From Spirochaetales bacterium (GTDB lineage: Bacteria > Spirochaetota > Spirochaetia > Treponematales > Treponemataceae), in contig QKDA01000060.1 in NCBI GenBank assembly GCA_003246765.1, positions 1-32,589 of the forward strand: a stretch of 32,589 nt of DNA, read 5' to 3'. How positions within the stretch are numbered: position 1 is the stretch's first letter; the number at the start of each line of letters is the position of its first letter. The position numbers and the translations under genes were made by a program. Shown here piece after piece: positions 13,591 through 17,850 of the stretch. The notes under the pieces are model-generated. The model worked only from the letters and a program-made list of their open reading frames with translations, did not search any database and had not been told where the DNA came from.

Positions 13591-15191
13591 ACATGCTCGT
13601 GCTTACCCTGGTAGTCCTTGCCTACCTTATCGTTACGGGTATCCTCGGCTACGCGGGTTTCAAGTCTACCAAGGACTCGACGGACTACCTCCTGGCGGGC
13701 CGAAAAATTCACCCCATGGTGATGGCCCTCTCCTACGGCGCTACCTTCATTTCCACCTCCGCCATCATCGGTTTCGGCGGCGCCGCGGCGGTCTACGGCA
13801 TGGGCCTTATTTGGCTTACCTTCCTCAACGTGATCGTGGGGATCTTCATCGCCTTCGTGTTTTTCGGACGCCGGACCCGGAAGATGGGCCACAACCTGGA
13901 CGCCCATACCTTCCCCGAACTCCTGGGAAAGCGCTATGACTCGCCCCGACTGCAAACCCTGGGGGGTGCCCTCATCTTCCTTTCCATGCCGCTATACGCG
14001 GGATCCGTGATTATCGGCGGGGTACAGTTCGCCTCCCAAACCCTGGGAATCAACTACGAGGTGGCCCTGCTGTTCTTCGTGGCCCTCGTGGCCCTCTACG
14101 TGGTCATGGGGGGGATGAAGGGGGTTATGTACACCGACGCCTTTCAGGGGGCCCTCATGTTCCTGGGCATGATCTTTCTTTTGGGCTATACCTGGTGGAT
14201 ACTCGGAGGGCCTTTCAAGGCGACGGCGGCCCTGACGGACCTCGCCCCCAAGGCGGTAGAGGCCTTCGGAAAAAACGGGCATCAGGGATGGACGGCCATG
14301 CCCAAGGCCTTTTCGCCCTATTGGCTCCAGCTTGTAACCACCATCGTCCTGGGGGTCGGAATCGGAGTACTCGCCCAGCCGCAGCTCGCTGTCCGCTATA
14401 TGACCGTCAAAAGCGGTCACGAACTGAACCGGGCGGTGCTGGTGGGGGGCATTTTCATCGCCGCCATGACCGGCGTGGCCTATACGGTGGGATCCCTGGC
14501 GAACGTCTACTACATGAACAAGACAGGCCAAATCGCCTTGGCCGCGGGCTCAATGAAAACCGACACGATCATCCCCATGTTCATCAATGACGCCCTGCCG
14601 CACTGGTTCGTGGCCTTTTTCTTCGTGACCCTCCTGGCGGCGGCCATGAGCACCCTAAGTTCCCAGTTCCACGCCATGGGTACTTCCTTCGGCCGCGACT
14701 TTCTTGAGCAGGGCCTGCAGGTTAAGCCGAAGAACGCCGTGGCGGCAAACCGTATCGCCATGGGGGTAGGCATTATCGTTTCGACCCTGGTGGCGTACGG
14801 GCTTCCGAAATTCTTTCCCGGGGGAACGGCGATAATCGCCACGGGAACGGCGATTTTCTTCGGACTGTGCGCTTCCGCCTTTCTTCCGAGCTACGTGGGC
14901 GCCCTCTACCTTAAAGGGGCTTCCAAGGCCGCGGCCCTTTCCTGCTTTGCGGCGGGCGTCGTATCCACCCTGTTCTGGCTCTTCTTCGTGCATGCCAAGG
15001 AAGCGGTACCCTTAGGGCTCTGCAAGCTCCTTTTCGGAACGGCGACCCTCTTTCCGTCCCTGGCCAACGTAGACGCCGTCATCGTGGCGCTGCCCCTTTC
15101 CTTTCTCGTTTATTTTGCGGTATCCGCCTTTACCCCGGCAGTTCGCGAGGAGGTAGTAAAAAAAGCCTTCGCGGGAATCGAAAGAGCTTGA
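13587..15191 (+). CDS. Sodium:solute symporter (SSS family), copy 2
   Basis: This 534-residue protein has exactly the same length as copy 1. In the first 188 residues I count about 15 differences, so protein identity is above 90 percent there. At the DNA level many synonymous third positions differ, which means the duplication is not recent and the proteins are under strong constraint. Differences cluster in the periplasmic loop near residues 215-240 and in the C-terminal 60 residues. It shares the TDAFQG motif and the AMSTLSSQFHAMGT segment. It is translationally coupled to small protein 2 in the tetR transcript. Its stop codon lies inside the -35 element of the ilv promoter, and no terminator intervenes before the ilv attenuator. 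Confidence 0.93.
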   Translation: MNMLVLTLVVLAYLIVTGILGYAGFKSTKDSTDYLLAGRKIHPMVMALSYGATFISTSAIIGFGGAAAVYGMGLIWLTFLNVIVGIFIAFVFFGRRTRKMGHNLDAHTFPELLGKRYDSPRLQTLGGALIFLSMPLYAGSVIIGGVQFASQTLGINYEVALLFFVALVALYVVMGGMKGVMYTDAFQGALMFLGMIFLLGYTWWILGGPFKATAALTDLAPKAVEAFGKNGHQGWTAMPKAFSPYWLQLVTTIVLGVGIGVLAQPQLAVRYMTVKSGHELNRAVLVGGIFIAAMTGVAYTVGSLANVYYMNKTGQIALAAGSMKTDTIIPMFINDALPHWFVAFFFVTLLAAAMSTLSSQFHAMGTSFGRDFLEQGLQVKPKNAVAANRIAMGVGIIVSTLVAYGLPKFFPGGTAIIATGTAIFFGLCASAFLPSYVGALYLKGASKAAALSCFAAGVVSTLFWLFFVHAKEAVPLGLCKLLFGTATLFPSLANVDAVIVALPLSFLVYFAVSAFTPAVREEVVKKAFAGIERA

Positions 15192-15217
15192 CAGATGCGT
15201 ATAAATATACATAAAAT
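15188..15217 (+). promoter_or_regulatory. ilv leader promoter
   Basis: A consensus TTGACA (15188-15193), an 18-bp spacer and TAAAAT (15212-15217) predict a start near 15224, which is the second ATG of the leader peptide. The -35 overlaps the symporter 2 stop codon. Confidence 0.7.
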
Positions 15218-15223
15218 ATGAAT

Positions 15224-15337
15224 ATGAATACATTGTTCAGCCTTTCGGCCGCCATTCTATCCGTACTCGTTCTTGTACTCGTAGTAGTAGAGGTAGTAGT
15301 AGTACCGGGTATCGGCAGACGGCTGTCTGGGGCATGA
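15224..15337 (+). CDS. ilv leader peptide (branched-chain amino acid attenuator)
   Basis: The frame from ATG 15224 gives a 37-residue peptide (39 from ATG 15218). Its core reads VLVLVLVVVEVVVVP, with ten Val codons, nine of them GTA, which the neighbouring genes use less than GTC/GTG, plus seven Leu codons. The reading frame is followed by mutually exclusive hairpins and a terminator before ilvB. This is the form of classical ilv leader peptides, in which ribosome stalling at uncharged Val/Leu tRNA favours antitermination. No Shine-Dalgarno precedes either ATG; the promoter places the 5' end at the second ATG, so a leaderless message is likely. The ORF is too short to be found by length, but composition, position and downstream structure together make it convincing. 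Confidence 0.85.
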   Translation: MNTLFSLSAAILSVLVLVLVVVEVVVVPGIGRRLSGA

Positions 15338-15370
15338 GCTTTCGTGGTAATCCGCGAAACCCTCCGGCAG
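15316..15370 (+). promoter_or_regulatory. ilv attenuator: pause hairpin and antiterminator segments
   Basis: Segment 1 CAGAC (15316-15320) pairs with GTCTG (15325-15329) as a 1:2 hairpin. Segment 2 CTGTCTGGGG (15323-15332) can instead pair with segment 3 CCTCCGGCAG (15361-15370): nine of ten positions pair, two as G-U. That pairing would sequester the rising arm of the terminator. The Val run ends at 15304, just before segment 1, and the leader stop at 15335-15337 is just after segment 2, as the attenuation model requires. Confidence 0.7.
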
Positions 15371-15389
15371 GTCCGGGGGGTTTTTTTTT
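15357..15389 (+). terminator. ilv attenuator terminator
   Basis: ACCCTCCGG (15359-15367) pairs with CCGGGGGGT (15373-15381) with one G-U, around a 5-nt loop, with flanking A-U pairs and a run of nine T. It lies between the leader stop and the ilvB ribosome binding site, so transcripts that form it would never reach ilvB. Confidence 0.88.
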
Positions 15390-15435
15390 ATCTGTCCCGG
15401 GAATTCCCGGGGATAATTCGGAAGGGAGAGGCAAT

Positions 15436-17247
15436 ATGATTGAAGCGACCGGAGCCCAGATTGTGGTGAAGCTGCTGGAGCGGCAGGGGATAAAGACCGT
15501 GGCGGGGATACCCGGGGGCAGCGTACTTCCCCTTTATGACGAGCTGTCAAGGAGCGCCATAGACCACGTGCTGGTGAGGCATGAGCAGGGCGGGGGCTTT
15601 TTCGCCCAGGGAATGGCCCGCTCCACGGGCGAAACCGCGGTGTGCATTGCCACCAGCGGTCCCGGCGCGATGAATCTCCTCACCGCCATCGCCGACGCCC
15701 GGGCCGATTCGGTTCCCATGGTGGCCATTACCGGGCAGGTTCCCACGAGCCTCATCGGTACCGACGCCTTCCAGGAGTGCGACACCTTCGGGCTGTCCTT
15801 TCCCATCACCAAACACAGCGTTATGGTGACCTCCGCCCTGGAGCTTCTTGAGGCCATTCCCCACGCCTTCGCCCTGGCTGCCTCAGGCCGTCCGGGTCCC
15901 GTTTTGATAGACATTCCCAAGGATATCCAGCAGCAGCGGGCGCGCTTCGAGGCGTGGCCCGAGCCGGGCAGGGGCGAACGCCGGGCCGCCCGGTTTCACA
16001 GCAGCGGCACCGAGATGTTCCGGGGCCTGGATTTGGCCGCGCAGTCCCTCCTGGAATGCGCGGAGCCGGTGCTCTACATCGGCGGCGGCTGCAATTCTCC
16101 CGAGGCTGCCCGGGGGGTGAAGGACCTGTTGGAAACCTACCCGATGCCCGCTGTAACGAGCCTCATGGGCCTTGGGGTCGTTTCTTCGGATTCGCCCCTG
16201 TTCGCGGGCATGGTGGGCATGCACGGCTCCCTGACCGCGAACAGGGTGATGCACGAGGCGGAACTCGTGCTTGCGGTGGGCGTGCGCTTCGATGACCGCG
16301 CCACGGGGCTGGTGCAGGAATTTTGTCCCCGGGCCCGAATTATCCATATCGACATCGACGCCGCGGAGGTGAACAAGATCCTGCCTTCCTGGCAATCGAT
16401 CGTCGCCGACGCCGAATCGGCCCTCCCAGCCCTGGCGGAAGCCATTCGGGAGGGCTCCGTGCGTGACGGCGCCCTTCGCGCCCGCCAAGGCTGGCTCCAA
16501 AAGACCCAGGCCTGGAGGGCGGAATTCGAGGAATGGTCCCGTGAAACCGCCCGGGCGGCAAAGGCCCGCTCCCCGTACCCGAATCCCGGGGAGTTTATCG
16601 CTTCGGTGCCCGACCTGGCCCGCTCCGCGGGGGTGAAGGCGGAAGATCTCATCGTGGCCACCGACGTAGGGCAGCACCAAATGTGGGCCGCACAGTTTTA
16701 CCCCCTCTCCCGGCCCAGGCAGTTCCTGACCTCCGGCTCCCTGGGAACCATGGGTTTCGGCCTCCCCGCCGCGATCGGGGCTGCCGCGGCCAACCCGGGC
16801 AAGCGGGTGGTCTGCTTTTCCGGCGACGGCTCGATCATGATGAACATTCAGGAGCTTGCGACCCTGGCGGAACGGGACTACGACGTTACCGTGATCGTCC
16901 TGGACAACCAAGCCCTGGGCATGGTTCGCCAGCAGCAGGCCTATCTCCTGGGGGGGAACTTCGCCGCGAGTATCTACGGCAGGAACCCGAACCTCACGGC
17001 CATCGCCGAGGGCTTCGGGATTCCGTCTTTCGACGCCTCGGACCCTTCCTGGTCCGCGGGGGCGTTTTCGGGCAAGGGGCCCCGCTTCGTGCGCTGCCGA
17101 ATCGCCCAGGACGAGATGGTGCTTCCCTTCGTTCCCGGCGGAAAGGCCAACGTGGACGCCATAACGGAAGCCCTGGAACCGGAAGACGGCGCGAAGAAGG
17201 CTTCCCAAGGGAGCGTACAGGGAGCGGCTTCCTTGCGGATGAGGTAA
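15436..17247 (+). CDS. ilvB: Acetolactate synthase large subunit (AHAS I-like)
   Basis: This 603-residue ThDP/FAD enzyme condenses pyruvate to 2-acetolactate (or 2-aceto-2-hydroxybutyrate), the first step of valine, leucine and isoleucine synthesis. The catalytic Glu50 lies in RHEQGGGFFAQG, and the ThDP motif GDG is at 463-465. At 496-501 the sequence is MVRQQQ, where most AHAS enzymes have MVRQWQ. E. coli IlvB (AHAS I) also has Gln at this position and prefers pyruvate over 2-ketobutyrate. The start is ATG 15436, after AAGGGAGAGG; a longer in-frame ORF from 15334 would run through the terminator and is rejected. No ilvN regulatory subunit or ilvC follows; engB begins 21 bp later. Expression should be controlled by the Val/Leu attenuator upstream. 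Confidence 0.94.
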   Translation: MIEATGAQIVVKLLERQGIKTVAGIPGGSVLPLYDELSRSAIDHVLVRHEQGGGFFAQGMARSTGETAVCIATSGPGAMNLLTAIADARADSVPMVAITGQVPTSLIGTDAFQECDTFGLSFPITKHSVMVTSALELLEAIPHAFALAASGRPGPVLIDIPKDIQQQRARFEAWPEPGRGERRAARFHSSGTEMFRGLDLAAQSLLECAEPVLYIGGGCNSPEAARGVKDLLETYPMPAVTSLMGLGVVSSDSPLFAGMVGMHGSLTANRVMHEAELVLAVGVRFDDRATGLVQEFCPRARIIHIDIDAAEVNKILPSWQSIVADAESALPALAEAIREGSVRDGALRARQGWLQKTQAWRAEFEEWSRETARAAKARSPYPNPGEFIASVPDLARSAGVKAEDLIVATDVGQHQMWAAQFYPLSRPRQFLTSGSLGTMGFGLPAAIGAAAANPGKRVVCFSGDGSIMMNIQELATLAERDYDVTVIVLDNQALGMVRQQQAYLLGGNFAASIYGRNPNLTAIAEGFGIPSFDASDPSWSAGAFSGKGPRFVRCRIAQDEMVLPFVPGGKANVDAITEALEPEDGAKKASQGSVQGAASLRMR

Positions 17248-17261
17248 AAAACCTCTATACT
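17233..17261 (+). promoter_or_regulatory. engB promoter, leaderless type
   Basis: TTGCGG (17233-17238), 17 bp and TATACT (17256-17261) sit at the end of ilvB and in the gap. The -10 ends 7 nt before the engB ATG, so the predicted start is at or next to the ATG. No Shine-Dalgarno is present. Confidence 0.5.
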
Positions 17262-17268
17262 CCGCCTC

Positions 17269-17850
17269 ATGATCAAGATAGTCTCCGCAGACTTCGTGAA
17301 AAGCGCCTCGGGAAAGCAGGGGTATCCCTCCCTTGCGGTTCCCGAGTTCGCCTTTTTCGGACGCTCCAACGCCGGCAAGTCCTCCCTCATCAATATGCTC
17401 GTGAACCGGAAGTCCCTGGTTAAGACCGGATCCCGGCCGGGGATGACCAGGCTCATCAATTTCTTTCTCGTGAACAAGGCCTTTTGCCTGGCGGACCTTC
17501 CGGGTTACGGGTATGCCCAGCGGTCCTCCCAGGAGCAGGACGCCTTTGACCAAATGCTCGCCGAGTATTCCCGGGAACGCCGGGAGCTGAAGACCCTTTT
17601 TTTCCTGATTGACCTCCGCAGGCTGCCCGGGGATGTGGAGAAGGCCTCGGTGGAATGGTTCGAGAGCCTCGGGGTCGAGGTGGTCATCGTGGGCACCAAG
17701 GCGGATAAGCTCGGCAGCAACGAGGTCCGCAACGTGGTGAAAAAATGGTCCGCCTTCTTTAACCGTTCCGCGGACCTCATTCCCGTAACCTCGGCCTCGA
17801 AAAAGAACGGCCGCGACACGATTTTGAGGCTCATCGCGGAACGGCTGTAG
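17269..17850 (+). CDS. engB: Ribosome biogenesis GTPase EngB (YihA/YsxC)
   Basis: This 193-residue essential-type GTPase acts in late assembly of the large ribosomal subunit. All G motifs are present: G1 GRSNAGKSS (31-39), G2 around GMTRLINFF (59-66), G3 DLPGYG (76-81), G4 TKADK and G5 TSASKK near the C-terminus. The length is normal. The ATG at 17269 gives the standard EngB N-terminus, in which the residues before the P-loop include PEFAFFGRSN. There is no Shine-Dalgarno, and a promoter-like -10 is 7 nt upstream. It lies between ilvB and purB, 63 bp before the latter, on the same strand. Confidence 0.96.
   Translation: MIKIVSADFVKSASGKQGYPSLAVPEFAFFGRSNAGKSSLINMLVNRKSLVKTGSRPGMTRLINFFLVNKAFCLADLPGYGYAQRSSQEQDAFDQMLAEYSRERRELKTLFFLIDLRRLPGDVEKASVEWFESLGVEVVIVGTKADKLGSNEVRNVVKKWSAFFNRSADLIPVTSASKKNGRDTILRLIAERL

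What the first reader, a model, noticed from the sequence alone, without database searches (positions are those of the whole stretch)
15188..15436. Complete ilv-type attenuator with a Val/Leu leader peptide in a probable spirochaete
A 37-codon reading frame with ten Val codons (nine GTA) and seven Leu codons starts at the predicted transcription start. The RNA after it can form a 1:2 hairpin (15316-15329), an exclusive antiterminator pairing (15323-15332 with 15361-15370, nine of ten pairs) and a 3:4 terminator (15359-15381 plus nine T) before ilvB. The Val run ends just before segment 1 and the stop codon lies just past segment 2, exactly as ribosome-mediated attenuation needs. Such leaders are best known from gamma-proteobacteria and actinobacteria; I do not know of one described in this lineage. 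The use of GTA, less common in neighbouring genes, would sharpen the response.
Basis: partly seen in the sequence, partly recalled or inferred. Interest (0 to 1): 0.82.

Follow-up and report, generated by a model that had tools for sequence, protein, structure and literature searches.

The report
Valine-sensing attenuator before spirochaete ilvB
Just before a valine-making gene, a spirochaete carries a short valine-rich reading frame and an RNA switch that would stop transcription when valine is plentiful, the same kind of device as the textbook one in E. coli, and found in its examined genus-mates and in more distant spirochaetes.

Summary
A near-consensus promoter (TTGACA/TAAAAT) should start RNA at or beside the ATG of a 37-codon frame with ten Val and seven Leu codons; an intrinsic terminator follows, then ilvB. 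All 11 same-genus loci found with this ilvB have leader plus terminator; an in-frame ATG lies 35-36 nt from the -35 box in each, so the leader mRNA is probably leaderless. The frame is conserved; the terminator covaries; antiterminator pairing is mostly retained; modelled folding switches as a ribosome leaves the Val run, at group level. A His leader and terminator precede hisG in the same genome. AHAS-I type ilvB genes of other spirochaete families, enterobacteria, betaproteobacteria, Bacteroidota and a Fibrobacteres MAG also have Val leaders; sequence models link enterobacterial and other-family spirochaete attenuators in both directions, but the window's own element is too diverged for that test. 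Best reading: a real ribosome-mediated attenuator, a new member of a known kind. No expression data were available.

The parts
15188..15193 (+). -35 hexamer TTGACA (overlaps the stop codon of the upstream symporter gene)
15199..15210 (+). palindrome GTATAAATATAC in the promoter spacer; probable operator of an amino-acid/nitrogen regulon (inferred)
   Evidence: 14 sites in own genome, control 0; the 12-mer is in 10 of 11 genus loci, not L095 (by eye)
15212..15217 (+). -10 hexamer TAAAAT
15224..15337 (+). leader reading frame MNTLFSLSAAILSVLVLVLVVVEVVVVPGIGRRLSGA, ATG at the predicted transcription start (leaderless)
   Evidence: spacing kept; frame conservation
15263..15304 (+). regulatory Val/Leu codon run
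15323..15332 (+). segment 2, 5' side of the antiterminator; also encodes part of the conserved RLSxA-like end of the leader
15340..15359 (+). helper hairpin between segments 2 and 3
   Evidence: 62.5% of cells paired in 11 loci
15361..15370 (+). segment 3, shared by antiterminator and terminator
15356..15389 (+). intrinsic terminator stem-loop and T tract
   Evidence: covariation
15420..15431 (+). ribosome-binding sequence GGAAGGGAGAGG of ilvB
   Evidence: sequence
15436..17247 (+). ilvB, acetolactate synthase large subunit, AHAS I type
   Evidence: (TIGR00118 above its cut-off; best hit PRK08155 below its cut-off)

Best explanation
It is a ribosome-mediated transcription attenuator that controls ilvB by the supply of charged valyl-tRNA (and probably leucyl-tRNA). 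RNA polymerase starts at or beside the ATG of the leader, which a ribosome loads without a Shine-Dalgarno site. When Val-tRNA is plentiful the ribosome runs through the Val/Leu run to the stop at 15335, covers segment 2 (15323-15332), segment 3 pairs with segment 4, and transcription stops at the T tract. When Val-tRNA is short the ribosome stalls in 15263-15304, segment 2 pairs with segment 3 round the helper hairpin before segment 4 is made, and transcription runs on into ilvB. Shown by sequence: promoter match, frame, Val/Leu content, terminator, possible exclusive pairing, conservation. Inferred: the transcription start, stalling, kinetic choice, and the amino acid response.
For: Leader plus terminator in 11 of 11 same-genus AHAS-I loci and, under the same rule, 41 of 112 in the family, three of these doubtful (L102, L122, L169). 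In other spirochaete families 14 of 17 loci have a leader-terminator pair and the other 3 (L244, L247, L248) a leader with a hairpin but no T tract. In-frame V+L+I count 12-19 against at most 7 in the other frames in 11 of 11. Terminator: 97% of cells paired, 4 pairs with changes on both sides, reached by 0 of 500 shuffles. Antiterminator helix: 87.8% of cells paired. Modelled antiterminator pairing falls as the ribosome leaves the Val run; this beats shuffles at p<0.1 in 9 of 11 (front edge 12) or 7 of 11 (front edge 15) genus loci. A similar profile appears at enterobacterial ilvB and ilvG loci, L010 and L016. Of 18 paralogous AHAS loci fetched, 2 gave weak hits, neither a Val leader. A His leader and terminator precede hisG in the same genome.
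Against: No transcript, ribosome or starvation data. At folding equilibrium the terminator wins at every ribosome position (0.99-1.00 in all 76 evaluations), so the switch has to be kinetic. For the window alone the fall in antiterminator pairing is not clearly beyond chance: 18 of 150, 8 and 26 of 150 shuffles do as well. The antiterminator with helper hairpin shows little covariation of its own: 27 of 500 shuffles reach the score, and slid versions show as many or more pairs changed on both sides (up to 7 against 5). L091 of the same genus fails the switch test (62 and 124 of 150). 71 of 112 family loci do not pass the leader rule.
Confidence: 0.92

Rival explanations
1. The hairpin is only the terminator of the upstream symporter gene, and the Val-rich frame is chance or a repeat.
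For: The symporter gene ends at 15191, and no other + strand terminator-like site was reported in 15100-15500, so the hairpin may also end that transcript.
Against: A promoter match lies between gene and hairpin; 0 of 780 shuffles give leader plus terminator; the frame is kept while third bases change; no Val leader at 18 paralogous AHAS loci.
Confidence: 0.03
2. The frame makes a functional small membrane protein, and the regulation is unrelated to stalling.
For: The peptide is hydrophobic.
Against: Length and order of residues vary among genus-mates while Val/Leu runs and the RNA segments stay; stop codon and segment 2 keep their relation to the terminator.
Confidence: 0.03
3. A T-box, riboswitch or protein-binding leader controls the terminator.
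For: Such leaders control BCAA genes elsewhere (recalled); a Leptospira 'ilvB motif' is among weak riboswitch candidates (PMC8632094, passages and section 16).
Against: No Rfam family reaches its gathering score in the window; the conserved part is a reading frame.
Confidence: 0.02
4. The operator in the promoter spacer does the main regulation and the attenuator is a minor layer (compatible with the best explanation).
For: The palindrome recurs at 14 places in the genome, next to genes such as glnA, glnN, asparagine synthase, aspartokinase, amtB and hisG.
Against: Not exclusive; hisG has both operator and His leader. Whether the palindrome binds anything is untested.
Confidence: 0.2

Closest known systems
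E. coli/enterobacterial ivbL attenuator of ilvBN (AHAS I)
   Same: Val-run leader, terminator, antiterminator profile, same enzyme type and gene clade
   Different: In the enterobacterial loci read (by eye) the leader ATG is not at the promoter's +1; the window element is not found by the enterobacterial sequence model at E 0.1, though some loci of other spirochaete families are
Corynebacterium glutamicum ilvBNC attenuator
   Same: Val-containing leader (MTIIRLVVVTARRLP), start codon one nucleotide from the transcription start, terminator (PMC11857589, passages)
   Different: Different phylum, shorter leader, three-hairpin layout
Sinorhizobium meliloti trpL (peTrpL) attenuator
   Same: Leader mRNA begins with the ATG (PMC7298713, passages)
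   Different: Trp leader
ilvL attenuator of ilvGMEDA (AHAS II)
   Same: Leu/Val/Ile leader, terminator, similar folding profile
   Different: Ile-rich; other AHAS clade; weak or no match to the spirochaete and enterobacterial models (best 2.7e-5, 0.017, none to 0.1)
Salmonella mgtCBR tandem attenuators
   Same: two leader ORFs in one leader, as in the tandem loci seen in passing (PMC3641672, search listing and start of abstract)
   Different: not an amino acid biosynthesis gene; not the window's layout

Membership tests
ribosome-mediated transcription attenuators of amino acid genes | short frame rich in codons of the gene's product amino acid | tested here: met
   10 Val and 7 Leu of 37 codons; translation itself not tested
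ribosome-mediated transcription attenuators of amino acid genes | intrinsic terminator between leader and gene | tested here: met
ribosome-mediated transcription attenuators of amino acid genes | antiterminator that excludes the terminator | tested here: met
   9 of 10 pairs, shares segment 3; 87.8% of cells over 11 loci; covariation weak; for the window alone not clearly above shuffles
ribosome-mediated transcription attenuators of amino acid genes | structure choice depends on ribosome position at the regulatory codons | tested here: inconclusive
   folding model agrees at group level, equilibrium folding does not show it; no experiment
ribosome-mediated transcription attenuators of amino acid genes | protector 1:2 hairpin (not obligatory for the class; recalled) | tested here: not met
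   can form in the window, not conserved
ribosome-mediated transcription attenuators of amino acid genes | readthrough rises on starvation for the amino acid | not testable with these tools
   needs cells
ivbL-type attenuator by descent | sequence similarity to enterobacterial ivbL attenuators | tested here: inconclusive
   met by L232, L233, L240, L242, L243 of other spirochaete families and by 7 of 7 enterobacterial loci in the other direction; L238 only 0.067 and L231, L237 not to 0.1; the window gives a partial match, E 0.051
ivbL-type attenuator by descent | controls an AHAS I gene | tested here: met
   AHAS-I clade, SH-aLRT 98; NCBIfam best hit PRK08155 below its cut-off, TIGR00118 above
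T-box leader | Rfam T-box match | tested here: not met
   0 Rfam matches at gathering score
Leptospira ilvB motif (WRC-14-1) | its consensus structure | not tested
   figure not held; text only

The most novel reading that the evidence does not exclude
Val-leader attenuators of AHAS-I genes are one regulatory RNA lineage that has stayed with its gene through splits or transfers between phyla: E. coli's textbook ilvBN attenuator and those of spirochaetes, betaproteobacteria and Bacteroidota share ancestry. In the window's family it diverged into a leaderless form with an operator in its promoter, was lost in many members of genus g3, and in some Bacteroidota and spirochaetes was doubled into two attenuators in series.
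Probability: 0.45. Interest if true: 0.7.

Novelty: new member of a known kind. Interest (0 to 1): 0.52.

Why it matters
Leader-peptide attenuation is best known from proteobacteria and actinobacteria; a 2010 survey said that to its authors' knowledge no such system had been shown outside those two phyla (the atypical ermC leader aside), and weighed transfer against convergence for Firmicutes (PMC2965389, passages). Here two amino acid genes of one spirochaete appear to carry such devices, and the ilvB one lies on the same gene lineage as the E. coli original. That makes the old question, does an attenuator travel with its gene or arise anew, directly testable. The probable leaderless start, fixed spacing and operator-like palindrome also offer a compact system for studying how a repressor and an attenuator share one promoter.

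Tried and rejected
Rfam scan: no match. Equilibrium folding with the full terminator: no switch seen, terminator always wins; I then scored folding up to the end of the terminator's 5' arm and loop, a choice made. Translational coupling through the ATGA overlap at 15334: the ATG is in frame with ilvB and open to it, but in L083 and L084 the distance is not a multiple of three (from coordinates), so taken as chance. A promoter-plus-start pattern search in the own genome gave 0 matches. Trp leader before trpE: none seen by eye. leuA-type gene: its match begins 103 bases from a contig end, so its upstream could not be read. Bacteroidota search around L012: 1 of 149 genomes matched at 1e-125, and L012's own genome did not reach that limit. 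Rows counted under the loose rule such as L047, L076 and L024 were not checked and are not used. Of the family matches, G130 (no start) and the second match of G098 were not fetched; of the 19 other-family spirochaete genomes, G313 (no start) was not fetched and L246 was too short.
Full report
Observation. The window holds, in order, a promoter-like site (TTGACA, 18 nt, TAAAAT; 11 of 12 matches), a 37-codon frame from ATG 15224 to TGA 15335-15337, a terminator stem-loop 15356-15384 with a T tract, a purine-rich ribosome site and ilvB at 15436. The leader has ten Val (nine GTA) and seven Leu codons. ilvB is an acetolactate synthase large subunit: TIGR00118 above its cut-off, best hit PRK08155 below its cut-off. 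No Rfam family is reached in the window. A rule asking for an ATG frame with at least 7 of 10 residues I/L/V, followed by a terminator, was met by 33 of 78 loci including the window and by 0 of 780 shuffles.

Genus. Of 145 family genomes searched, 123 had some AHAS match. I read the DNA before 112 AHAS-I type matches. All 11 found in the window's genus have leader and terminator; one further genus member listed (G080) had no match, and two genomes without a match were not listed. Eight of the 11 leaders as called begin MN, all have a Val/Leu run, and they end in an RLSxA-like stretch whose codons also carry RNA segment 2. In-frame V+L+I is 12-19, against at most 7 in the other two frames. TTGACA lies 35 or 36 nt before an in-frame ATG in all 11, and in three loci of other genera, L090, L188 and L092; four of the genus loci have a second in-frame ATG 6 nt away. 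The start codon thus sits at the expected transcription start, which would leave no room for a Shine-Dalgarno site. That leader mRNAs can be leaderless is known from C. glutamicum ilvBNC and S. meliloti trpL (PMC11857589 and PMC7298713, passages).

RNA. On the 11-locus alignment the terminator pairs in 97% of cells with four pairs changed on both sides; 0 of 500 shuffles reach these or the covariation score, 110 of 500 reach the number of pair types. The 2:3 antiterminator pairs in 87.8% of cells and the helper hairpin inside it in 62.5%; together they exceed the shuffles only modestly (30 of 500 reach the paired percentage, 27 the covariation score, 87 the pairs changed on both sides). They beat slid versions on cells paired (75.8% against at most 53.0%) and covariation score, but not on pairs changed on both sides (5 against up to 7).

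Switch model. With the complete terminator the equilibrium model gives termination at every ribosome position. If folding is scored before the terminator's 3' arm is made, antiterminator pairing is high while the ribosome is in the Val run and falls once it passes (window 0.75 to 0.27). Against shuffles of the spacer this fall is p<0.1 in 9 of 11 or 7 of 11 genus loci depending on the footprint; the window itself gives 8 or 26 of 150, and L091 fails. A similar profile is seen at enterobacterial ilvB and ilvG loci, L010 and L016. I take this as support at group level only.

Family and phylum. Under the rule, 41 of 112 family loci pass, three of them doubtful (L102, L122, L169). In genus g3, which holds the near relatives of Treponema sp. 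RUI115, 19 of 65 pass. A stricter tally of 110 family loci gives 36 with both features, 1 leader only, 27 terminator only, 46 neither. I printed 26 of the 71 loci that fail: L098 has a weak leader, L132 a terminator without leader, and 7 of the 26 (L098, L100, L117, L125, L132, L136, L139) have a terminator-like site by the rule. In the phylum search 43 of 247 genomes matched at 1e-140; 19 of them lie outside the family, 18 were fetched and 17 could be used. By the rule that pairs a Val-rich frame with a terminator within 600 nt, 14 of 17 pass; the other three (L244, L247, L248) have a Val leader and a hairpin but no T tract. By the stricter rule 11 of 17 pass.

Other phyla. The ilvB tree of 76 rows puts the window in an AHAS-I clade of 61 rows (SH-aLRT 98), with the seven enterobacterial and betaproteobacterial AHAS-I rows beside six other-family spirochaete rows (86). 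Bacteroidota, Myxococcales and Fibrobacteres rows sit on long branches near its base and their places are unsure. A sequence model built from seven other-family spirochaete attenuators finds 7 of 7 enterobacterial ivbL loci at E 7e-10 to 9e-8; ilvG-type loci, which are attenuators of another clade, come at 2.7e-5 or worse. Azospira (1.5e-4) and one Bacteroidota locus, L250 (2.2e-4), do not beat that control; L012 (1.3e-6) and Accumulibacter (3.1e-6) do. Without the Val run the enterobacterial loci still come at 4e-8 to 7e-6 and the best ilvG-type locus at 0.017. The enterobacterial model finds five spirochaete loci at 2.6e-7 to 6.3e-6, misses others of the seven (L238 0.067; L231 and L237 not to 0.1) and finds no ilvG-type locus to 0.1; five shuffles of all 208 upstream regions give nothing better than 0.26. 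This favours shared ancestry for those attenuators. The window and its genus reach only 0.0006 to 0.45 where they match at all, no better than ilvG, so for them descent rests on the gene tree and common layout, not on sequence.

Wider regulation. The promoter spacer holds a palindrome that occurs as GYATAWWTATRC at 14 places in the genome against 0 for the reversed control. Neighbouring genes include glutamine synthetases (two types), an asparagine synthase, an aspartokinase, an ammonium transporter, hisG and citrate synthase; one site lies near an ArgR-family gene, and some sites have neighbours of other kinds or none recognised. It resembles an ARG box (recalled). hisG also has a leader MNKASMNFIHHHHAVVLSLPG and terminator; 18 of 30 family hisG loci read have a frame with at least three His including HH, among them all 8 from the window's genus (7) and G018 (some start with GTG or TTG, and no shuffle control was run).

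Literature. Searches of the held open-access library showed me no paper describing a leader-peptide attenuator of amino acid genes in spirochaetes, nor tandem amino acid attenuators; I saw the listed rows only (20 of 34, 20 of 33, 15 of 31, 3 of 3, 15 of 21, 8 of 47, 6 of 6, 12 of 13, 1 of 1, 1 of 1). The one paper holding 'spirochaet', 'leader peptide' and 'attenuator' (PMC4833913, passages) is about reinitiation distances. Tandem attenuators are in print for Salmonella mgtCBR (PMC3641672, listing). A Leptospira ilvB motif, 7 sequences, is among weak riboswitch candidates (PMC8632094, passages and section 16). Subscription papers, such as the 2004-2010 comparative surveys of attenuation that I recall, were not available.

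Verdict. It is a new member of a known kind in a lineage for which I found no description. Its unusual points are the probable leaderless start with fixed spacing, the operator-like palindrome inside the promoter, and the absence of a conserved 1:2 hairpin. The larger open point is whether AHAS-I attenuators are one inherited lineage.

Noticed in passing
window 15199-15210; own-genome loci L251-L262: Palindrome GYATAWWTATRC at 14 genome sites, many beside nitrogen and amino acid genes (glnA, glnN, asparagine synthase, aspartokinase, amtB, hisG, citrate synthase); looks like an ArgR-type regulon.
   Followed up: partly
L258:757-822 (leader), hisG at L258:951: Second attenuator in the same genome: His leader MNKASMNFIHHHHAVVLSLPG with terminator before hisG, kept in genus-mates (L263-L269) and G018 (L270).
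   Followed up: partly
L012, L250 (Bacteroidota); L238, L245, L235 (spirochaetes), upstream of ilvB: Two leader-plus-terminator units in series before one ilvB: L012, L238 and L245 by rule, L250 and L235 by eye.
   Followed up: partly
L244, L247, L248 and L014, upstream of ilvB: Val leader followed by a GC-rich hairpin without a T tract; may act on translation or with Rho.
   Followed up: no
genus g3 loci, e.g. L112, L119, L128: 46 of 65 loci of this genus do not pass the leader-plus-terminator rule before AHAS-I ilvB, as if the element was lost repeatedly.
   Followed up: partly
L234, upstream of ilvB: Val leader MRTLSTRLDLISILVAVVVVVLLTVKFAP and terminator lie before a small extra frame that separates them from ilvB.
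   Followed up: no
window 15396-15411: Perfect 16-bp palindrome CCCGGGAATTCCCGGG between the terminator and the ilvB ribosome site.
   Followed up: no
window 15334: Leader stop overlaps an ATG (ATGA) in frame with ilvB and open to it; not kept in frame in L083 or L084.
   Followed up: partly
window 15436-17850; G000:C36: No ilvN directly after this ilvB (next gene is ysxC); the genome's second AHAS (43% identical) lies on a contig with two HMGL-like genes and shows no Val leader (L194).
   Followed up: partly
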